Source: Anaerolineales bacterium
Lineage (GTDB): Bacteria > Chloroflexota > Anaerolineae > Anaerolineales > DRMV01
Assembly: GCA_027053355.1 (NCBI GenBank)
Contig: JALUDX010000050.1
Span: 270-42,622, forward strand
Direction of reading: 5' to 3'
Length of the DNA stretch: 42,353 nucleotides
In this document: piece by piece, positions 1-33,624 of the stretch
Position numbering within the stretch: position 1 is the first letter of the stretch
How the letters are laid out: every line of letters begins with the position of its first letter
Notes under the pieces: model-generated
The model's database searches: none
The model's input: the letters and a program-made list of their open reading frames with translations, nothing else
What the model was told of the DNA's origin: nothing
Position numbers and translations under genes: made by a program

Positions 1-368
1 GACACAGATTTACACCGATTGGGTGAAAAACACAGAAGACACAGAAAACCCACAGAAAACACAGAAACTTTTTCTTTGCGCTCTCTGCGCCTCTGCTTCC
101 TCTGCGCCTTTGCGTTCATCCTTGGCGGCCTGGTATGATTGGCGTTACCAACCACCGATTGACACAGATTTACACCGATTGGGTGAAAAACACAGAAGAC
201 ACAGAAAACCCACAGAAAACACAGAAACTTTTTCTTTGCGCTCTCTGCGCCTCTGCTTCCTCTGCGCCTTTGCGTTCATCCTTGGCGACCTTGGCGTCCT
301 CTTGGCGCCCTTGGCGACTTAAAAATCCGTGCTGTCCGTGGTCTATTTTCTTGTGGCTGAACAGTTAC
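1..368 (+). repeat. Composite spacer repeat E1 with tandem 160-bp unit
   Basis: Non-coding repeat block at the window edge. Positions 1-127 recur without a mismatch at 161-287, giving a period of 160 bp. The 33-bp linker at 128-160 and the following bases (131-225) recur identically at 11949-12043. The content is short CACAGA-, CTCTGCG- and CTTGGCG-rich motifs. The block ends at 355-368 with GGCTGAACAGTTAC, the shared right end of the mobile-element family in this window, 6 bp before the rsmA stop. The left end lies outside or is lost. Short open frames here are repeat translations, not genes. Confidence 0.85.
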
Positions 369-8041: not shown

Positions 8042-8812
8042 ATGCCTGCTTTTTTCCCTCACCTGCCACGACCGCTGGTCATTGCTCATCGCGGCGCGTC
8101 GGCCGACGCGCCGGAAAACACCTTGCGCGCTTTCCGCCTGGCCGTGGCTCAGCAAGCCGACGCGGTGGAACTGGACGCCAAACTCAGCCGCGATGGCCGC
8201 ATCGTGGTGATTCACGACGATACCGTCGACCGCACCACCAACGGCCACGGCGCGGTGCGCCGCCTCGATTGGGCGGCGCTGCAGCGTTTGAGCGCCGGCG
8301 GCGCGGCCGACGACCCCGAAACCGCCATCCCCCTGTTGGCCGACGTGCTGCGCGCGGTGGTCGACGACTTGCTGGTCAACATCGAACTGACCAACTACGC
8401 CGCGCCGCTCGACGCGCTCCCCTGCCGCGCGGCCGAAACCATCGCGGCCTTGGGCGTGCAAAAACGGGTGTGGATTTCTTCGTTCAACCCCCTGACCTTG
8501 TTCCGATTTGCTCGCTGCCTGCCTGAGGTGCCGATAGGCTTTTTGGTAGACCAGGCGCGCCCCTGGCTTTATACCCTTTTCCGTTGGGTGGTACCCCACC
8601 AGGCCGTCGAACCGCACCTCAAATTGGCGACCGCCCGGGCCGTGCAGCACTGGCGGGGGGAAGGCAAAGCCGTGCTCGTCTATACCGTCAACCAGCCCGA
8701 AGCCATGCGCCGGCTGTTTGCCTGGGGGGTGGACGGCATTTTCACCGACCGCCCCGCCCTGGCTCGTCAGATACGCGACGAGCAGAAGCATGAAAACCGT
8801 TTGCCCGGATAA
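8042..8812 (+). CDS. Glycerophosphodiester phosphodiesterase
   Basis: A 256-residue GDPD-family enzyme that hydrolyses deacylated phospholipids (glycerophosphodiesters) to glycerol-3-phosphate and an alcohol. The TIM-barrel catalytic residues are all visible: His16-Arg17 (IAHRG), Glu43 and Asp45 (VELDAK) and His58 (VIHDD). Metal-site and substrate residues recur at NIEL and at the C-terminal VYTVNQP and [10 protein letters not shown]. No signal peptide is seen, so it is probably cytoplasmic. ATG 8042 follows the ATPase stop directly. The stop codon (8810-8812) lies inside the left end of mobile element E3. Without the element the frame would run on in phase to the ATG of the next gene. The catalytic domain itself appears complete. 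Confidence 0.93.
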
Positions 8813-9104
8813 CCGTTCAGCCTCAAAGAGAAACGACCGATTGCACAGAGAGGGCACCGAGAACCCAGAAGGCGGAAGGGGTCGAGGTACTGAGGGTTTG
8901 AGGTAAAGGGGGGCTGGTTACCCGGTTGTGTAGTGACCTGGTTAGGAGGTGCGCCTCTTGGCGCTCCCTCTGCGCCTTTGTGTTCCTTTGCGCTCTTTGC
9001 GCTACTTTTTTGCGTCTTTGCGTTACTTGGTGCCCAAAAATCCGCGACTATCCGTAATCGTCCGTGTTCATCCGTGGCCTGTTTTCCAAAGGCTGAACAG
9101 TTAC
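8809..9104 (+). mobile_element. MITE-like element E3 between GDPD and GH3 genes
   Basis: A 296-bp element with ends ATAACCGTTCAGCC and GGCTGAACAGTTAC (9091-9104). It is flanked by TTGCCCGG (8801-8808) and CTGCCCGG (9105-9112), a 7/8 direct repeat read as an 8-bp target duplication. The interior carries CACAGAGAGGGCACCGAGA and CTCTTGGCGCTCC / CTGCGCCTTTG-type motifs. It fills nearly the whole 307-bp spacer. Its left end provides the GDPD stop codon, and its right flank abuts the GGAGG of the next gene. Confidence 0.82.
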
Positions 9105-9119
9105 CTGCCCGGAGGAAAG

Positions 9120-11948: not shown

Positions 11949-12402
11949 TGGTATGATTGGCGTTACCAACCACCGATTGACACAGATTTACACCGATTGG
12001 GTGAAAAACACAGAAGACACAGAAAACCCACAGAAAACACAGAGTAACTATTCAGCCTTGGCAAGAAGAAACCACAGATTACGCAGATTACGCAGAAAGA
12101 GATCCACAGATGAGCATAGATTGGGCGAAAAACACTAAAAAGCCCGCGCTCGCCCTCACTTCTTGGCGGTCTTGGCGTCATCTTGGCGATCTTGGCGACC
12201 TAAAAATCCGTGCTATCCGTGGTCTATTCCCTTGTGGCTGAATAGTTACAACACAGAAACTTTTCTTGGCGCCCTTGGCGCTAATCTCTCTGCGCCTCTG
12301 CTTCCTCTGCGGCTTTGCGTTCACCCTTGGCGACTTAAAATCCGCGGCCATCCGTTTTATCCGCGTTGTCCGCGGCCTATTTCCCCAAGGCTGAACCGTT
12401 AC
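11949..12402 (+). repeat. Composite spacer repeat E4, interrupted by element E5
   Basis: Positions 11949-12043 are identical to 131-225. After the E5 insertion the same sequence resumes at 12250 (AACACAGAAACTTTT) and continues through CTCTGCGCCTCTGCTTCC-like motifs to a right end GGCTGAACCGTTAC at 12389-12402, only 5 bp before the GT4 start codon. No target duplication was found for the composite as a whole. Together with E5 this accounts for the 507-bp spacer; no gene is present in it. Confidence 0.8.
12044..12249 (+). mobile_element. MITE-like element E5, nested, with perfect ends and target duplication
   Basis: The cleanest copy of the family. It is 206 bp, with perfect 14-bp terminal inverted repeats GTAACTATTCAGCC and GGCTGAATAGTTAC, flanked by the perfect 8-bp repeat AACACAGA (12036-12043 and 12250-12257). 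It interrupts the E4 repeat, whose uninterrupted counterpart is seen at 214-230. The interior (ACCACAGATTACGCAG, then AGCCCGCGCTCGCCC, then TTGGCGGTCTTGGCG) closely matches E10 and, in reverse complement, E11. Confidence 0.92.
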
Positions 12403-19825: not shown

Positions 19826-19971
19826 CCCACGCGCCTGAGTAACCAAGCAACCAGCCACTTAACCCTTTAGCACCTCTCCTCTTCCCGCATCCCGGCTCAC
19901 GCCTTGACCTTCCGCTTTCTGTGTCTTCTGTGGTTTTCTGCCTGCGTCATCCGTAAAGGCTGAACAGTTAC
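19826..19971 (-). repeat. Truncated mobile-element copy E6
   Basis: A reverse-orientation copy of the E2/E8/E9 interior (GTAACCAAGCAACCAGCC, TTCCCGCATCCCGG, TTCTGTGTCTTCTGTGG) ending in GGCTGAACAGTTAC at 19958-19971. The other half and any target duplication are missing, so the copy is presumably deleted up to the stop of the deacylase gene. It ends 30 bp before ATG 20002. Confidence 0.75.
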
Positions 19972-20001: not shown

Positions 20002-22956
20002 ATGAGGAAAAACTTGCTCTGGTTTGGATGGAGCCTCTTAGCCACGGTCGCGGCGCTGTTTTGGTTGGTTTATTTTGTGCGTCAGTCGTGGTGGGCCGCG
20101 CCGTACACGGTGGCCTACCGGGTTTACCGGGGTGGGCTGATTGTGGGGTTGGGGGTGGGCGTGGCCGCGCTTTGGGTTTGGGCTTGCCCCCCTTGCCGTA
20201 GGCGCTGGCCGCGCCTTGCCCGGCTGGGTGAGAACTGGCTGCTGCAGCCCGCCTGGCTGCGTTTTTGGGCGGTGGCGGCCTGGTTGAGCACGGGCGCGGC
20301 TTTGCTCCCCCCCCAGCCGGATTTTTTGGGCCTGCCCCAGTGGAAGTACAGCCTGCTTTGGTGGCGCTGGCTGGCCGTAGTGGCCTGGGCCGCATGGGGG
20401 ATGGGGCTGTGGGCCCAGCGGGGGCGCTTGCCCCGGCTTGCTTTGCCCGAACGCCGCGGCGCGGGGTGGGTGCTCGTTGGCCTGGGCTTGACCTTTGGGC
20501 TTTTGGCCGTCACCGGGCTGGGGTGGAAGCGAGCGCTTTACTGGCAGGGCGTGGGGGTGCCGGTGACCAGTGGCGAAGTGTGGCTGGTGCTCACTGTGGC
20601 GGCGGGGGTGGTCATTTTGGGGCGCTGGGTGGGGCGCCGTTTTGGTAGGCGGTTGCACGCGACCGACGGGGCGGTGTTTCTGTTCCTCTGGGCGCTGACC
20701 TTTGTCGTCTGGATGAGCACGCCGCCTACCCCCAGTTATTTCCAGCCGCCCTCTTTCCCACCTAACGAGCAGCACTATTTGGCTTCGGATGCCGCTTATT
20801 TCGCGCTGGGCGCCAACCAGGGGCGGCTGGGCTACGGCTACTTTTCCAGCGCGGCTTTTCCTCATGGTTTGCCCACCGTGGCCCATCAGGGGTTGGCCGG
20901 TCTGCTGGCGCTTTTACACCTGGTGACGACAGATTTTGGGCGTGTTACCGCCTTGTGGGTGTTACTGTTGGCCTTGACCCCGCCGCTGCTTTACCTGCTG
21001 GCTGCGCTTGGCTATTCGCGCGGCAGCGGGCTGTTGCTGGCCGGGTTGGCCATCGTGCGGGAATACAACGTCATCGCCTACGCTCATCGCTTTCGCGTGG
21101 CCGCCCACGTCAAAATTTGGCTCACAGAACCGCTGCTACGGGAAATTTTGGTGCTGCTGACGTTGAGCGCGCTTTTGTTCGTGCAGCAGCCGCAGCGTCG
21201 CAAGGGTTGGCTTTGGGCTGCTGGTGCGCTTTTGGGCCTGGCTTATCTGGTGCGGCGGGAGAGCGAAGTGCTCATTGTGCTAGCCGTGCTGTTGCTTGCT
21301 TTTGAGGTGTTGCGCCAGCGCGTGGGCGGATGGCGGCAAGGTGCGGTTTTGGTAGGAGTGCTCCTTGTGGGGTGGCTTGCCGTTTTAGAGCCGTGGCACG
21401 CGCGGGCCGTCGTTGAGGCGCAGCGCCTTCCTTTTGAGAGGTATCGTAACGGAAGTCGACTTTTCTGGCTTTCTGCCGTCGAGCGGGCGCTTTGGCCTTC
21501 TTTCCGGCCTGAGGTGTTTGCCCTGGCGTCCCCTACGCCCACCACAGGCACGCTGGCTTCCACACCAACGGCTAAGCCCACGGTGACGAGGCCTGCTCCT
21601 ACGGCTACACCCACGGCTGCGGCAACGAAAGCGTCGCCCACGGTTGTGCCCACGGCCTCCACGGCTACACCCACGGCTGCGGCAACGAAAGCGTCGCCCA
21701 CGGTTGCGCCCACGGCCTCCACGGCTACACCCACGGCTGCGGCAACGAAAGCGTCGCCCACGGTTGCGCCCAGCCCGACCGCCGTAGCCGCAATAGCCAC
21801 GGTTGCCCCTACGGCTACGCCCTTGCCGCCCTCGGCTTCGCTGAGCGCTAAACTTCGCCATTGGCACGGTCAATTGTTGTTCAACGTTTTGGATCTCAGC
21901 GTGCGCAATGGCCTGGCGCTTTTGTTCGCCTTCCCTCCCGACGCTGAGTTTTACTCCGTGTACGACACTTTGTGGCGTCATCGCCCCCTTTGGGGCAAGA
22001 GCCTGGACGCGCCGTGGCGGCCTTTTACCCCCGGCATGGCGGTAGTGTGGTTGTTCAACGTGGGCCTCGTGGCTTTGGGTGTGGCTGCGCTGTGGCGGAA
22101 GATGCCCGCGGCTGTCGTGGCGCCAGTTTCGACGGCCTTGGTTTATTTGGGGGCGACCGCGGTGGGGCGCGATGCGGGGGGGCGGTACGTGTTGCCTTTT
22201 GATTGGGTGCTCCCGCTTTTCTACGCGGTGGGCTGGATGGTGTTGTTGCGTGAAGGCGCCAAACTGACCCGCTGGTCGTGGCCACAGTGGTGGCGTTCGC
22301 CGTGGGTGCCGACAAGCGCGGCGAATGGCCGTCGCGGTTGGTGGCTGGGCGGCGGCATTGTGCTGCTGGCCCTGGCGATGCTCGCACTGGAATTCGGCGC
22401 GATGGGTTGGGTGGCTTTTTCAGGCCAGGATGGCGCGGCCCAATGGCCGGGCACCGCGCCACCCCGCTGGCGTCCCGTCACCAACGAGGAATTTTTGACC
22501 CGTCTGGATCAACGCCACGCGTGGGACGATTTGCCCTGGCCGCGCGCGGCGGTGGCTCAGGCCTTGAAGCAAGGATCGGTGGTGGCCGGGTGGGGGTATC
22601 TTTTCTATCCTCGTTATGTGGCGCAGCCCCGGTTGTGTGGCGATTTGTGCCGAGGGTTTTCCCTCACTCAGCCGACGCTTTTCTTCGACGGTTTGGTGGG
22701 GGCCAGCAGGCCCCTGCATTTCGTGCTCCCCGGCAGCCCTTCGCCGCCACGCCTGGCCGATGGCACCGAGATGCTTGTGCTGTATTGCCCTCAAACGGTT
22801 GTCCCTCACAAAACGTTTTCACTTCATGCCTATCATCGTGCGGTGGCTTTGATCACCGTGCGCCGCGAGCATGGCCTGCCCGTGGGGCACCGGGTGTTCC
22901 TCGCTAACCCGACCGATTTGCAACAATGCGCGGCCGCGGCGCAGGCGCGGCGTTAG
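20002..22956 (+). CDS. Large GT-C-like polytopic membrane protein with Thr/Pro repeat loop
   Basis: A 984-residue protein. ATG 20002 has GGAG 7 bp upstream; a TTG at 19987 is less likely. Roughly 12-15 hydrophobic segments are split into an N-terminal set (about 5-490) and a C-terminal set (about 620-820). Between them is a hydrophilic Ala/Thr/Pro loop (about 515-610) containing three copies of a 20-residue repeat. YLASDAAYFALGANQGRLGYG in an extracytoplasmic loop resembles the acidic site of GT39/PMT-like enzymes. A soluble C-terminal domain (about 830-984) follows. The substrate is unknown and membrane glycosyltransferase is an inference. The upstream repeat copy E6 ends in its leader region. 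Confidence 0.72.
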   Translation: MRKNLLWFGWSLLATVAALFWLVYFVRQSWWAAPYTVAYRVYRGGLIVGLGVGVAALWVWACPPCRRRWPRLARLGENWLLQPAWLRFWAVAAWLSTGAALLPPQPDFLGLPQWKYSLLWWRWLAVVAWAAWGMGLWAQRGRLPRLALPERRGAGWVLVGLGLTFGLLAVTGLGWKRALYWQGVGVPVTSGEVWLVLTVAAGVVILGRWVGRRFGRRLHATDGAVFLFLWALTFVVWMSTPPTPSYFQPPSFPPNEQHYLASDAAYFALGANQGRLGYGYFSSAAFPHGLPTVAHQGLAGLLALLHLVTTDFGRVTALWVLLLALTPPLLYLLAALGYSRGSGLLLAGLAIVREYNVIAYAHRFRVAAHVKIWLTEPLLREILVLLTLSALLFVQQPQRRKGWLWAAGALLGLAYLVRRESEVLIVLAVLLLAFEVLRQRVGGWRQGAVLVGVLLVGWLAVLEPWHARAVVEAQRLPFERYRNGSRLFWLSAVERALWPSFRPEVFALASPTPTTGTLASTPTAKPTVTRPAPTATPTAAATKASPTVVPTASTATPTAAATKASPTVAPTASTATPTAAATKASPTVAPSPTAVAAIATVAPTATPLPPSASLSAKLRHWHGQLLFNVLDLSVRNGLALLFAFPPDAEFYSVYDTLWRHRPLWGKSLDAPWRPFTPGMAVVWLFNVGLVALGVAALWRKMPAAVVAPVSTALVYLGATAVGRDAGGRYVLPFDWVLPLFYAVGWMVLLREGAKLTRWSWPQWWRSPWVPTSAANGRRGWWLGGGIVLLALAMLALEFGAMGWVAFSGQDGAAQWPGTAPPRWRPVTNEEFLTRLDQRHAWDDLPWPRAAVAQALKQGSVVAGWGYLFYPRYVAQPRLCGDLCRGFSLTQPTLFFDGLVGASRPLHFVLPGSPSPPRLADGTEMLVLYCPQTVVPHKTFSLHAYHRAVALITVRREHGLPVGHRVFLANPTDLQQCAAAAQARR
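21601..21780 (+). repeat. Three 60-bp tandem repeats inside the GT-C-like gene
   Basis: Period 60 bp with copies at 21601, 21661 and 21721. The first two differ at one position, and the third diverges only in its last 8 bp. Each copy encodes TATPTAAATKASPTV(V/A)PTAS, residues 534-593, in the long loop. The period is a multiple of 3, so copy-number change keeps the frame. Confidence 0.95.
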
Positions 22957-23014
22957 GCGGTGCGGCAGGGGGCTTTCGATCTGCGAATCACATAGCCCCT
23001 TCGTTAGAGAATTT

Positions 23015-23282
23015 GAACTGTTCAGCCACAAGGGAATAGACCCCCGGATAGCACGGATAGCCACGGGTATACACGGATTTTTGGGTGCCAGGGTCGCCAA
23101 CGAAGTTAATGCGAAGATGCGAAAAGGGCAAAGGCAAAGAACGCAAGGTTGACGCTCTCGTAATCCCCCCGCTTCCCGCTTCCCGCTTCCCGCTTTCTGT
23201 GTTTTCTGTGCCTCCTCTGTGTCTTCTATGTTTCCTTGTCCGCAGAATCTGCGGTTTCTTCCTGCTCAGGCGGAGCCGTGAC
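23015..23282 (-). mobile_element. MITE-like element E7 with perfect 8-bp target duplication
   Basis: A 268-bp element with ends GAACTGTTCAGCC (left) and AGCCGTGAC (right, degenerate). It is flanked by the perfect direct repeat GAGAATTT at 23007-23014 and 23283-23290. The interior has the ACACGGATTTTT / TCGCCAACG motifs in reverse orientation and a (CCCGCTT)4 tract at 23168-23195. It has pushed a terminator-like hairpin (23326-23361) away from the upstream gene. Confidence 0.82.
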
Positions 23283-23291
23283 GAGAATTTG

Positions 23292-23300
23292 TGATAAAAT
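23292..23300 (+). promoter_or_regulatory. Weak extended -10-like sequence before the MFS gene
   Basis: TGATAAAAT fits an extended -10 (TGnTAnAAT) and lies upstream of both the hairpin at 23326 and element E8. No clear -35 is present. If it is a promoter for the MFS gene, E8 now sits between it and the start codon. Confidence 0.25.
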
Positions 23301-23325
23301 TCAGGGCAATCTACCTACCCTTGCT

Positions 23326-23361
23326 CTCTGGTGGCGCGAACAACCCCCAGAGACGTTTTTT
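23326..23361 (+). terminator. Probable rho-independent terminator
   Basis: CTCTGGTGG and CCCCCAGAG form a 9-bp stem with one mismatch and a 9-nt loop, followed after 3 nt by six T residues. It probably terminates the 984-residue membrane-protein gene. Without E7 and its duplication the distance from the stop codon would be about 94 nt instead of about 370. An attenuator for the MFS gene is an alternative. Confidence 0.65.
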
Positions 23362-23372
23362 GTTCCCTCATG

Positions 23373-23639
23373 GTAACCGTTCAACCTTGGGGAAGCAGCC
23401 CACGGATGAACGCGGATGATGGCAGATAGACGCGGATTTTAGGGTGCCGAGGGCACCGGGAGAGGCACCGGAGTAACCAAGCAACCAACCACCCAACCAA
23501 CCACCCAACCAACCACCCAACCCTTTAGCACCACACCTCTTCCCGCATCCCGGATTACGCTTTGACTTCCCGCTTTCTGTGTCTTCTGTGGTTTTCTGGC
23601 TACGTCATCCGCAGTGTCTCTTTGAGGCCGAACAGTTAC
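23373..23639 (-). mobile_element. MITE-like element E8 upstream of the MFS gene
   Basis: A 267-bp element with ends GTAACCGTTCAACC and GGCCGAACAGTTAC (23626-23639), flanked by CCCTCATG (23365-23372) and CCCTCGTG (23640-23647), a 7/8 direct repeat. The interior is the reverse complement of the E2/E9 type. It has been expanded by a 12-bp tandem (CAACCAACCACC, three copies, 23482-23517). It ends 30 bp before the chosen MFS start. Confidence 0.85.
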
Positions 23640-23668
23640 CCCTCGTGCAGAGAAACGGAGTGTATCGC

Positions 23669-25042
23669 GTGCCGAAAAACAACACCAGCCGTATTTTGAG
23701 CCTTCTCTTTTTGGGCGTGCTCATGGCCGCCCTGGATATCGCCATCATCGGGCCCGCCCTCCCGGCCATCCGGGACGCTTTCCAGGCCACCGACCGGGCC
23801 GTGGTGTGGGTGTTCACCACTTACTTGCTGTTCAATCTCATTGGCACGCCCATCATGGCCAAACTTTCCGACCGGTTAGGCCGGCGAGATGTGTACATTG
23901 CCGACGTGCTGCTCTTCGTGCTCGGGTCGGTGGTCGTGGCTTTGGCGCCCAGCCTGTGGTGGGTGATTGTGGGGCGGGGCATTCAGGGCTTTGGTGCGGG
24001 GGGCATTTTCCCTGTGGCCGCGGCGGTCATTGGCGACACCTTCCCGCCCGAACGCCGCGGCCGGGCTTTGGGCATCATCGGCTCGGTGTTTGGGGTGGCC
24101 TTTTTGGTAGGGCCGGTGCTGGCCGGGGTGGTGCTCCACTATTTTTCGTGGCACATGCTGTTCTGGGGGCCGGTGCCTTTTGCTCTGGTGCTGATTCCCC
24201 TGGCCTGGCGGTGGCTTCCCGCTCAGGGCACCCCGGCGCGCGGCAGGATGGACGCGCTGGGCATGGCCATGTTGGCCGGGGTGCTGGCCGCGCTGGCCTT
24301 TGCCCTCAACCAATTGGATGCCAAACATCTGGCGGCCAGCCTTCGCTCCCCCCAGGTGGTGTTGCCCCTGGCCTTGGGCGTGCTTTTGTTGTTTGTGCTG
24401 GCCAAGGTAGAGCGCGAAGCCGACGACCCGATCATCCATCCTGCTTTGTTTGGCAGCCGCCAACTGCTGTTGGCCAACGCGTTAGCCTTTGGCGCGGGGG
24501 TCATCGAGGGGAGTACGGTGTTTATCCCGGCGTTGTTGGTGGCCGCGTTTGGCGTCAGCGAATCGCGAGCCAGTTTTATGCTTTTGCCCATGGTGGCCAC
24601 CCTTTCGGTGGGTGCGCCGCTGTTCGGCCACGGCCTCGACCGGGTCGGTTCGCGCCTGGTGATTATCGTCGGCACCCTGTTGGCCGCGCTGGGCACCCTG
24701 GCCCTGGGCTTTTTCTCGCTGACGCCGACCGTGTTTTACCTGGCCGCGGCCGCAATTGGCTTTGGGCTTTCGGCCTTGCTCGGTGCGCCGCTCCGCTACA
24801 TCATGCTGGGGGAGGCACCCCGCAGCGAGCGAGCGGCCGCGCAGGCCTTGATTGCGGTGATGACCAAAGTGGGTCAGATGCTGGCCGCCGCGGCCGTGGG
24901 CGCGGTGGCTGCCAGCATGGGCGGCGGCGCGGTGGGCTACAGCGCGTCGTTTCAGGTGTTGGGCGGCGTGGCTTTGCTCCTTTTTGTCCTGGCGCTTTTC
25001 CTCAAGCGCCGGCATGAGGAAGTGGCTACCCGCCAGGCCTAA
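23669..25042 (+). CDS. MFS transporter, DHA2 (EmrB/QacA)-like
   Basis: A 457-residue transporter with about 12-14 transmembrane helices. Motif A is KLSDRLGRRDVY, motif B lies in IVGRGIQGFGAGG, and motif C is GVAFLVGPVLAG, the antiporter signature. MAALDIAIIGPALPAIRDAF in helix 1 is the typical D1 motif of drug:H+ antiporters. The likely role is export of a hydrophobic or cationic compound driven by proton motive force; the substrate is unknown. GTG 23669 is preferred because GGAG lies 8 bp upstream. GTG 23645, in frame and inside the E8 target duplication, corresponds to an ATG in the left duplicate and could be the ancestral start. It is a single gene between two inverted repeat elements. 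Confidence 0.9.
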   Translation: MPKNNTSRILSLLFLGVLMAALDIAIIGPALPAIRDAFQATDRAVVWVFTTYLLFNLIGTPIMAKLSDRLGRRDVYIADVLLFVLGSVVVALAPSLWWVIVGRGIQGFGAGGIFPVAAAVIGDTFPPERRGRALGIIGSVFGVAFLVGPVLAGVVLHYFSWHMLFWGPVPFALVLIPLAWRWLPAQGTPARGRMDALGMAMLAGVLAALAFALNQLDAKHLAASLRSPQVVLPLALGVLLLFVLAKVEREADDPIIHPALFGSRQLLLANALAFGAGVIEGSTVFIPALLVAAFGVSESRASFMLLPMVATLSVGAPLFGHGLDRVGSRLVIIVGTLLAALGTLALGFFSLTPTVFYLAAAAIGFGLSALLGAPLRYIMLGEAPRSERAAAQALIAVMTKVGQMLAAAAVGAVAASMGGGAVGYSASFQVLGGVALLLFVLALFLKRRHEEVATRQA

Positions 25043-25052
25043 CGCGCCCCGT

Positions 25053-25100
25053 GGCGGCGAGGGCTACCTTCGCCCTCGTCGCCGCCTCGGTCGCTTTTCT
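25053..25100 (+). terminator. Terminator-like hairpin after the MFS gene
   Basis: GGCGGCGAGGGC (25053-25064) pairs with GCCCTCGTCGCCGCC (25072-25086), allowing one G-U pair and a small bulge. A short T-rich stretch (TCGCTTTTCT) follows, 10 bp after the MFS stop. Confidence 0.55.
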
Positions 25101-25114
25101 GGGGGAATTGCCGG

Positions 25115-25347
25115 AGAGCCTCGAAGACACACTGCGGATGACGCAGACCGAAAACCACAGAAGACACAGAAAGCGGGATGTCAAGGCGTGATCCGGGATG
25201 CGGGAAGAGGCGAGGCGCCAAAGGGTTGGGCGGCTGGTTGCTTGGTTACTCGGGTGCTTCTCCTGGTGCCCTCGGCGCCTAAAATCCGCGTCTATCCGCC
25301 ATCATCCGCGTTCATCCGTGGGCGGTTTTCCAACGGCTGAACCGTCC
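25115..25347 (+). mobile_element. MITE-like element E9 downstream of the MFS gene
   Basis: A 233-bp element flanked by the perfect direct repeat ATTGCCGG (25107-25114 and 25348-25355). The left end is eroded to AGAGCCTC and the right end is GGCTGAACCGTCC. The interior (AAAACCACAGAAGACACAG, GTGATCCGGGATGCGGG, CGCCATCATCCGCGTTC) matches E8 in opposite orientation and E2 in the same orientation. Confidence 0.83.
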
Positions 25348-25355
25348 ATTGCCGG

Positions 25356-25612
25356 AAAGCGTTTCGTCATTCGGGCTATTTACGCAGCGTTTTGCGTTAT
25401 ACTGTTAACTGTGCCGCCTTTTCGGAAGAGCGCCCGCGGACGACGCGGACGAGGAGGGCTGGCTTTCGGAGACGCCAAGCGCCAAGAAAGGGCTCAGGGC
25501 GCCAAAGGAGGCGCGCAAGCACCCAAGTAACCCGCCACCCTTTTGCCTCAATCCCTCAATCCCCCAATCCCTTTAATCCCTTACCTCAACATCTGCACAA
25601 AGGAGGAGCCCT
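25356..25612 (+). other. Non-coding spacer before the UPF0173 gene
   Basis: No gene is seen. A TATACT box at 25398-25403 could be a -10 element, but no convincing -35 accompanies it. The rest holds degenerate CGCCAAG-rich and AATCCC-rich short repeats related to the interiors of the mobile elements, and ends in the AAAGGAGGAG ribosome binding site of the next gene. Confidence 0.4.
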
Positions 25613-26302
25613 ATGACGACCAAAATCACCTGGTACGGTCACGCGACCATTGGTGTCGAGACCAGCGACGGCTACAAAATTTTGATCGACCCCTTTTTCA
25701 CCGGCAACCCCGCGGCCAGCACCACCGCCGATCAGGTCACCGCGGACTTCATCGTGGTCAGCCACGGCCACGGCGACCACGTGGGCGATGCCGTGGCCCT
25801 GGCGCAACGCACCGGCGCGCCCATCATCAGCAACTACGAAATCACCAACTGGCTGACCGGCCAGGGGGTGGAAAAGGTGCACCCGCAGCACATTGGCGGC
25901 GGTTTTCGCCACCCCTTTGGCTACCTCAAACTCACCCTGGCCTTGCACGGCTCCGCACTGCCCGATGGCTCATATGGCGGCAACCCCGCGGGCATTTTAT
26001 TGACCACCAACGACGGCCTCAAACTCTACTTTGCCCAAGATACCGGCCTGTTTGGCGATATGCGACTCATCGGTGAAGAGGGCCTCGACCTGGCCATGCT
26101 CCCCATTGGCGACAATTTCACCATGGGCCCCGACGACGCGCTGCGGGCGGTCAAACTCTTGGCGCCCAAGCACGTCATCCCCATCCACTACAACACCTGG
26201 CCGCTCATCGCTCAAGACGCGGAAGCCTGGGCGCAGCGGGTCAAAGCCGAGACCGACGCGCAGGTGCACGTGTTGCAGCCGGGCGACGTGTTTACCCTGT
26301 AA
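25613..26302 (+). CDS. UPF0173-type metal-dependent hydrolase
   Basis: A 229-residue metallo-beta-lactamase-fold protein. The N-terminal ITWYGHATIGVET and the zinc motif SHGHGDH (His51, His53, Asp55, His56) are clear. Further metal ligands are in ALHGSA, FAQDTG and the C-terminal HVIPIHYNTWP. The whole sequence follows the UPF0173 (YtkL-like) pattern and length. The cellular substrate of the family is not established. AAAGGAGG lies before ATG 25613. It starts a short run with the methyltransferase and recO. Confidence 0.92.
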   Translation: MTTKITWYGHATIGVETSDGYKILIDPFFTGNPAASTTADQVTADFIVVSHGHGDHVGDAVALAQRTGAPIISNYEITNWLTGQGVEKVHPQHIGGGFRHPFGYLKLTLALHGSALPDGSYGGNPAGILLTTNDGLKLYFAQDTGLFGDMRLIGEEGLDLAMLPIGDNFTMGPDDALRAVKLLAPKHVIPIHYNTWPLIAQDAEAWAQRVKAETDAQVHVLQPGDVFTL

Positions 26303-30901: not shown

Positions 30902-31117
30902 GTAACTGTTCAGCCTCGGCAAGAAGAAACCACAGATTACGTAGATTACGCAGAAAGAGACCCACAGATGGGCACAGATTGAGCGAAAAACACTAAAAAG
31001 CCCACGCTCGCCCTCGCTTCTTGGCGGTCTTGGCGTCATCTTGGCAACCTTGGCGACCTAAAAATCCGTGGCTATCCGTGTCCCCCGTGGTCTCTCTCCT
31101 TGTGGCTGAATAGTTAC
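30902..31117 (+). mobile_element. MITE-like element E10, without target duplication
   Basis: A 216-bp element with ends GTAACTGTTCAGCC and GGCTGAATAGTTAC (one mismatch between the inverted ends). The interior is nearly the same as E5. The flanks AACGGGAG and GGATAAAG do not match. A deletion next to it is suggested, because a 5'-truncated hicA remnant starts immediately beyond its right end. Confidence 0.85.
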
Positions 31118-31123
31118 GGATAA

Positions 31124-33407: not shown

Positions 33408-33422
33408 AGTCGGAGCGCCTGC

Positions 33423-33624
33423 GTAACCATTCGGTCACAAGGAGAGAGACCACGGAGGACACGGATAGCCACGAATTTTTAGGTCGCCAAAGTCGCCAAG
33501 ATGACGCCAAGACCGCCAAGAAGCGAGGGCGAGCGTGGGCTTTTTAGTGTTTTTCGCCCAAACTGCGCCAATCTGTGAAATCGGCGTAATCTGCGGTTTC
33601 TCCTTGCCGAGGATGAACCGTGAC
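33423..33624 (-). mobile_element. MITE-like element E11 with perfect target duplication
   Basis: A 202-bp element with degenerate ends GTAACCATTCGGTC and ATGAACCGTGAC. It is flanked by the perfect 8-bp repeat GCGCCTGC (33415-33422 and 33625-33632). The interior is the E5/E10 type in reverse orientation. It separates neuB from the KpsS-like gene. Confidence 0.86.

What the first reader, a model, noticed from the sequence alone, without database searches (positions are those of the whole stretch)
23365..25355. MFS efflux gene bracketed by inverted copies of the same element
E8 (23373-23639) and E9 (25115-25347) are similar in interior, opposite in orientation and flank a single transporter gene. 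Each has its own distinct target duplication, so they inserted independently. The arrangement could still move as a composite unit or invert by recombination between the arms, switching transporter orientation.
Basis: partly seen in the sequence, partly recalled or inferred. Interest (0 to 1): 0.5.

Follow-up and report, generated by a model that had tools for sequence, protein, structure and literature searches.

The report
Two old mobile-repeat copies flanking transporter
A drug-efflux-type gene in an uncultured bacterium happens to lie between two worn copies of a very abundant short mobile DNA element, an ordinary arrangement that shows no sign of moving the gene or flipping it.

Summary
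E8 (23373-23639) and E9 (about 25116-25348) are inverted, about 86%-alike copies of one short element around an MFS gene (23669-25042). Each has its own 8-bp target duplication (7 of 8 and 8 of 8 matching). The genome (Anaerolineales by its named relatives) is full of them: 172 exact end motifs, control 0. The duplication is 8 bp and hardly any other length: 32 exact among 129 short end pairs, 0.34 expected. One precise empty site was found between congeners. Ends and duplication match the single-ORF ISBst12 group of IS66 transposons: a complete relative in the same order and published ISDge4. No IS66 transposase was found in this genome. So these are IS66-type MITEs, probably stranded. Composite mobility is unsupported: 0 of 308 end pairs 1.0-3.5 kb apart share a duplication. 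Each element still pairs with its own duplication, so no net inversion shows, and E9 has lost most of one end. E8 lies in the MFS leader, 29 bp from the start; four of five congeners have an operator-like palindrome there that is missing here.

The parts
23373..23639 (+). E8: IS66-type MITE, 267 bp, terminal inverted repeats GTAACCGTTCAACC / GGCCGAACAGTTAC
   Evidence: 52 BLAST matches to this stretch in the genome, a lower bound since 40 of 339 candidates were scored
23365..23372 (.). left target duplication of E8 (CCCTCATG)
   Evidence: listed as a 1-mismatch duplication
23640..23647 (.). right target duplication of E8 (CCCTCGTG, 1 mismatch)
23669..25042 (+). MFS transporter gene (GTG start with GGAG upstream, by eye), 457 aa, nearest DHA2/EmrB-like models but below their cut-offs
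   Evidence: one match in each of five congeners at 76-78% protein identity
25116..25348 (-). E9: inverted, worn copy of the same MITE; outer (right) end GGCTGAACCGTCCA, inner (left) end lacks about 8-9 nt (25115-25347 is equally possible)
25108..25115 (.). left target duplication of E9 (TTGCCGGA; the shared repeat is ATTGCCGGA, 25107-25115)
25349..25356 (.). right target duplication of E9 (TTGCCGGA; the shared repeat is ATTGCCGGA, 25348-25356)
23290..23301 (+). TGTGATAAAATT: possible -10 region of the MFS gene by comparison with congeners (by eye; no match in the promoter scan)
   Evidence: 0 promoter-like sites found
25613..26302 (+). downstream neighbour, metallo-beta-lactamase-fold hydrolase

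Best explanation
E8 and E9 are two independent, old insertions of a high-copy, non-autonomous element (a MITE) of about 190-300 bp. Its ends are GTAACNGTTCRGCC and it makes an 8-bp target duplication. It was most likely mobilised in trans by an IS66-family transposase of the single-ORF (ISBst12) group acting on those ends. Such a transposase is not found in this genome now, so the copies are probably stranded. Shown: the shared ends, the 8-bp duplication, the copy number, the uneven spread within the genus, one precise empty site for a family member, and similar ends plus an 8-bp duplication on a complete IS66 element in the same order. Inferred: that an IS66 enzyme did the moving, and that it is gone. 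The gene between E8 and E9 is a passenger only by position. The only plausible effect is on its leader, since E8 ends 29 bp upstream of its start.
For: End motif GTAACNGTTCRGCC: 172 exact hits in this genome, 0 for the control pattern; 425 against 13 with 1 mismatch. Sample of 863 kb: 32 exact and 48 near-exact (at most 1 mismatch) 8-bp duplications among 129 pairs at 60-400 bp, shuffled 0.34 and 0.88; 0-1 exact at lengths 6, 7, 9, 10; 117 end-bounded elements in a non-overlapping set limited to 600 bp, 76 of them 186-269 bp. Same genus: 138 hits in G002 and 65 in G003, but 5, 0 and 0 in G004, G001 and G005. Empty site: G004 has a single AAAACCAG upstream of the metallo-beta-lactamase-fold gene; G002 has AAAACCAG, a 193-bp element, AAAACCAG at the same point. 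IS66: of 22 IS66 loci, L087 in G022 has ends GTAACCGTTCAGTT / GTAACCGTTCAGTA, 1617 bp, exact duplication CTCAATTT, around a 491-aa ORF that is an IS66 transposase (NF033517, 301.6 bits over a cut-off of 180); L098 has GTAACTGCTCACGC ends, 1450 bp, a 7-of-8 duplication. PMC12898284 (passages seen): ISDge4 of the ISBst12 group has ends GTGACTACTCAGCA / GTAACTGCTCAGCA, one ORF and an 8-base direct repeat on a new insertion. Midpoints inside predicted ORFs: 16 of 51 elements with a duplication, 43 of all 117, where 86% of the sampled sequence is ORF (crude ORF calling).
Against: No IS66 transposase was found in G000 by PF03050 or NF033517, nor in the MITE-rich G002 and G003. The one congener with a clear IS66 gene (G001) has no exact end motif. 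Only 2 of 22 IS66 loci gave paired ends with a duplication of at most 1 mismatch; two more (L086, L092) have paired ends without a matching duplication. The IS66 ends agree with the MITE consensus at only 10-12 of 14 positions. The interior of the MITE is not shown to derive from an IS66 element. The E8 duplication is imperfect and E9 lacks most of one end.
Confidence: 0.85

Rival explanations
1. E8-MFS-E9 is a composite transposon that moves or has moved as a unit.
For: Both outer ends are recognisable. The MFS gene lies in different neighbourhoods in the congeners.
Against: The outer flanks do not match and each element has its own duplication. 0 of 308 end pairs 1.0-3.5 kb apart share an 8-bp duplication with at most 1 mismatch, 0.46 expected. 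No IS66 transposase was found in the genome. Gene order around the neighbouring gene also differs between congeners, so a changed position needs no transposon.
Confidence: 0.03
2. The segment between E8 and E9 inverts by homologous recombination and switches the transporter.
For: Inverted arms of about 230-270 bp, with an identical run of 29 bp. A 374-bp block at 98.9% in two contigs may reflect exchange between repeat copies elsewhere in this genome. 7 exact cross-matches of flanks between different elements, control 0.
Against: The duplications of E8 and E9 still pair within each element. The arms are only about 86-88% alike. No promoter-like site was detected in 22950-25620. Of the 7 cross-matches, 4 come from two pairs of elements that keep their own duplication and 3 each involve at least one element without a matching duplication, so none is a clear swap.
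Confidence: 0.05
3. The elements belong to a transposon family other than IS66 that also makes 8-bp duplications.
For: No IS66 gene found in the genome. IS66 membership rests on ends, duplication length and relatives, not on a linked transposase.
Against: Ends of IS66 elements of the same order and of published ISDge4 agree at 10-12 of 14 positions with the MITE consensus, with the same duplication length in L087, L098 (7 of 8) and ISDge4.
Confidence: 0.1

Closest known systems
ISBst12 group of the IS66 family (ISDge4 of Deinococcus geothermalis, PMC12898284; passages seen)
   Same: 14-bp ends beginning GTRACTRCTCAGC, 8-base direct repeat on insertion
   Different: ISDge4 encodes its own transposase; E8 and E9 encode none and are about 250 bp
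Bacterial MITEs, for example MITEPsy1 and MITEPsy2 of Pseudomonas syringae (PMC3189936; passages seen)
   Same: short, no coding sequence, terminal inverted repeats, more than one copy
   Different: those are listed as 'IS5?' and unknown and have 2-6 copies; here the ends are IS66-type and there are over a hundred exact end motifs
Composite transposons (recalled)
   Same: two related elements bracket a gene
   Different: no shared outer duplication, no transposase, one inner end largely deleted

Membership tests
MITE (non-autonomous DNA transposon) | terminal inverted repeats | tested here: met
   E8 ends agree with the family consensus at 13 and 14 of 14 positions; 372 left and 375 right end motifs (up to 3 mismatches, so part of them chance) in 863 kb. 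E9 keeps only one end.
MITE (non-autonomous DNA transposon) | target duplication of fixed length | tested here: met
   8 bp: 32 exact of 129 pairs, 0.34 expected; 0-1 at lengths 6, 7, 9, 10
MITE (non-autonomous DNA transposon) | short, no coding capacity, many copies | tested here: met
   76 of 117 copies are 186-269 bp; 52 E8-like matches in the genome, a lower bound
MITE (non-autonomous DNA transposon) | precise insertion shown by an empty site | tested here: met
   for a family member upstream of the metallo-beta-lactamase-fold gene, G002 against G004; not possible for E8 and E9 themselves, whose surroundings are not syntenic
IS66 family, ISBst12 group (as source of the ends) | ends of the GTAAC..[T/C]TCA type | tested here: met
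   L087, L098, L086; ISDge4 ends in PMC12898284
IS66 family, ISBst12 group (as source of the ends) | 8-bp duplication | tested here: met
   L087 exact
IS66 family, ISBst12 group (as source of the ends) | encodes an IS66 transposase (needed for an IS, not for a MITE) | tested here: not met
   none found in genome G000; E8 and E9 are too short to hold one
Composite transposon | one target duplication around the whole unit | tested here: not met
   outer flanks CCCTCATG and TTGCCGGA differ; 0 of 308 pairs at this distance
Invertible promoter or gene switch | both orientations in a population | not testable with these tools
   no reads; one assembly only

The most novel reading that the evidence does not exclude
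Insertion of E8 in the leader rewired the efflux gene. In four of five congeners (G002-G005) the promoter region carries a palindrome TTACC-N4-GGTAA between a -10-like TGGTAMAAT (by eye) and the start, as expected for a repressor site. In this lineage the palindrome is absent from the window and from 863 kb of the genome, and the leader is occupied by E8, so the gene may be constitutive or driven from within the MITE.
Probability: 0.15. Interest if true: 0.35.

Novelty: new member of a known kind. Interest (0 to 1): 0.17.

Why it matters
It replaces a speculative gene switch by a plain explanation and names the likely mobilising family of a very abundant repeat in some Anaerolineales genomes. 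IS66-type MITEs of this group did not turn up in my paper searches (8, 0, 2, 0 and 0 papers, seen as listings except for passages of PMC3189936). The uneven spread in one genus (172, 138 and 65 against 5, 0 and 0 exact end motifs) offers a natural comparison of genomes with and without a MITE expansion.

Tried and rejected
Composite unit and inversion: rejected or unsupported, see the rivals. RNA family in the window: none at Rfam gathering scores. E8 as a structured RNA: z-score -1.22, not unusual. Autonomous copy of the element inside the sample: no end pair 1.0-3.5 kb apart with an 8-bp duplication of at most 1 mismatch. The IS66 gene of congener G001 (L084/L199): no family ends around it. 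Weak IS66 match in G004 (L201, 26 bits, under the cut-off): no family ends. In one search I gave the wrong strand of L098 and got no family; its IS66 assignment rests (128.9 bits, minus strand). Words in the MITE interior as a general feature of the phylum: CRCGGATGAACRCGGATR occurs in 13 of 400 Chloroflexota genomes, 85 times here and 9 times or fewer elsewhere, so it is not general. One text search with four repeat words found one paper, on Bacteroides fragilis capsule loci, seen as a listing only. Empty site for E8 and E9 themselves: not possible, because the neighbours found here were not seen beside the MFS gene in any of the five congeners (the contigs of G001 and G005 end close to the gene on one side). 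My first guess of IS66 came from recalled end and duplication features and was tested afterwards.

Full report
What is there. The window is C50:270-42622 of a 2.45-Mb draft genome in 215 contigs. The nearest named relatives found with the MFS protein are Anaerolineales and Chloroflexota MAGs; one of them, JALVOR010000205.1, has the contig length of congener G003's contig C205, 13670 bases. E8 (23373-23639) and E9 (about 25116-25348) lie in opposite orientation around one MFS gene (23669-25042; PF07690; DHA2/EmrB-type models score below their cut-offs). E8 ends in GTAACCGTTCAACC and GGCCGAACAGTTAC, with flanks CCCTCATG and CCCTCGTG. E9 keeps its outer end (GGCTGAACCGTCCA) but has lost about 8-9 nt of its inner end, and is flanked by ATTGCCGGA on both sides. 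The two copies match in inverted blocks of 142, 68 and 61 nt at 86-88%.

It is a transposon family. The end motif GTAACNGTTCRGCC occurs 172 times exactly in this genome against 0 for the reversed control, and 425 against 13 times with one mismatch. In 60 stretches totalling 863,380 bases I paired left and right ends (up to 3 mismatches each). The stretches were not random: they come from long contigs and from contigs listed with the motif or with E8 matches, so densities are not to be extrapolated. At distances of 60-400 bp, 32 of 129 pairs have an exact 8-bp flanking duplication and 48 have one with at most one mismatch (shuffled: 0.34 and 0.88). At lengths 6, 7, 9 and 10 there are 1, 1, 0 and 0 exact ones. 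At 401-1000 bp, 1 of 100 pairs is exact and 4 have at most one mismatch (shuffled 0.04 and 0.26). A non-overlapping set of up to 600 bp, whose choice favours pairs with a duplication, holds 117 elements, 33 with an exact and 18 with a one-mismatch duplication; E8 is among the latter. A first pass on the first 20 stretches, 377 kb, gave 13 exact of 58 pairs under 400 bp.

It inserts precisely. Upstream of the metallo-beta-lactamase-fold gene that follows the MFS gene here, congener G004 reads TTATACTAAAACCAGCCGTTTC, while G002 has AAAACCAG, a 193-bp family member, and AAAACCAG again at the same point. Copy numbers differ sharply inside the genus: 172 (G000), 138 (G002), 65 (G003), 5 (G004), 0 (G001) and 0 (G005) exact end motifs; G001, G003 and G005 are only 77-82% complete. 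A BLAST search with E8 over 301 genomes of the order, in which two candidates per genome were scored, found matches in 18, this genome included; outside this genome and G003 they cover parts of E8 only.

Which transposase. GTAA ends and 8-bp duplications suggested IS66 (recalled), so I searched for IS66 transposases. Of 41 genomes, 7 have matches, 22 loci in all, 2 of them under the cut-off; G000 has none. L087 in G022 (same order) is a complete element: 1617 bp, ends GTAACCGTTCAGTT and GTAACCGTTCAGTA, exact duplication CTCAATTT, one 491-aa ORF that is an IS66 transposase by NF033517 and PF03050. L098 has GTAACTGCTCACGC ends, 1450 bp and a 7-of-8 duplication. L086 has GTAACTACTCAGC ends and L092 GTAAGCGTTCAG ends, both without a matching duplication. 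Searches looked at all 22 loci, at 13 of them; the other 18 loci gave no pair of ends around the gene, though several (L088, L094, L096, L099, L101, L103) show a lone related end. These ends agree with the MITE consensus at 10-12 of 14 positions when ISDge4 is counted in. PMC12898284 (passages seen) reports ISDge4, ISBst12 group of IS66, with ends GTGACTACTCAGCA and GTAACTGCTCAGCA, one ORF and an 8-base repeat on a new insertion. The ends and duplication of E8 therefore fit non-autonomous relatives of that group. A second search with NF033517 again found nothing in G000, G002 and G003. Either the driver was lost, or it is missing from these draft assemblies.

Composite or switch. Each of E8 and E9 pairs with its own duplication, so they inserted separately and have not exchanged flanks an odd number of times. 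Among 308 end pairs 1.0-3.5 kb apart, none shares an 8-bp duplication with at most one mismatch (0.46 expected), so no trace of gene-carrying units of that size was seen in the sample. Seven exact cross-matches of flanks between different elements were found, against 0 in the reversed control: four come from two pairs of elements that each keep their own duplication (same target word, or a copied block), and three each involve at least one element whose own flanks do not match. I read none as a clear swap, but they do not exclude one. The arrangement is common: 65 E8-type copies in the sample give 19 adjacent pairs on the same stretch, 8 of them inverted; 6 pairs lie 1-2 kb apart, 2 of them inverted, one being E8/E9. 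The best partner of E8 among the 51 elements with a duplication is 84% identical, so this insertion looks old; other members have partners at up to 99%.

The gene. The MFS protein has one match in each of the five congeners at 76-78% identity. In G002, G003 and G004 it is followed by what looks like the start of ftsH (my reading of the translation); in G005 it follows what looks like a tRNA gene (by eye). None of 17 window proteins tested, the MFS protein aside, lies beside it in the stretches of the five congeners; in G001 the downstream side and in G005 the upstream side are cut by contig ends. Position is therefore fluid with or without E8 and E9. In G002-G005 a TTACC-N4-GGTAA palindrome lies upstream of the start; it is absent from the G001 locus, from this window and from the 863-kb sample. 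E8 ends 29 bp before the GTG start. That E8 affects expression is inference only; the promoter scan found no sigma-70-like site.

Verdict. An ordinary pair of MITE insertions. The family is worth a name as an IS66-type MITE expansion in Anaerolineales; the bracket around the transporter needs no explanation beyond the density of the elements.

Noticed in passing
L030-L033 upstream of the MFS gene; absent at window 23280-23668: Palindrome TTACC-N4-GGTAA with a -10-like TGGTAMAAT upstream in four of five congeners, absent here and in 863 kb of this genome: a likely repressor site lost in this lineage.
   Followed up: partly
window 12044-12249 (L012 12313-12518) and L019 3817-4022: Two 206-bp elements with the same duplication AACACAGA, 99% identical, inside a shared block of 374 bp at 98.9%: a nested element copied with its surroundings, perhaps by recombination or gene conversion between repeats.
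   Followed up: partly
window 281-368, 2661-2904, 8807-9105, 19831-19954, 23016-23047, 30902-31118, 33422-33577: Further copies or fragments of the same end-sharing repeats, one every few kb.
   Followed up: no
L109 and L110: In G002 and G003 other family members sit upstream of the metallo-beta-lactamase-fold gene at different points, and in G003 (L030) a lone end lies about 145 bp upstream of the MFS gene: independent insertions before the same genes.
   Followed up: partly
window 21555-21772: 60-nt direct repeats inside the 989-aa ORF upstream of E8, probably a repetitive low-complexity protein stretch; no Pfam family in that ORF.
   Followed up: no
G001 (L084/L199): The only IS66 gene over the cut-off in the genus sits in a genome without any exact family end motif.
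   Followed up: partly
G037 (L062, L068, L074, L079): Elements of 112-130 bp with related ends (GTAACTACTCAGCC type) and 8-bp duplications in another family of the order, alongside a partial IS66 gene in that genome.
   Followed up: no
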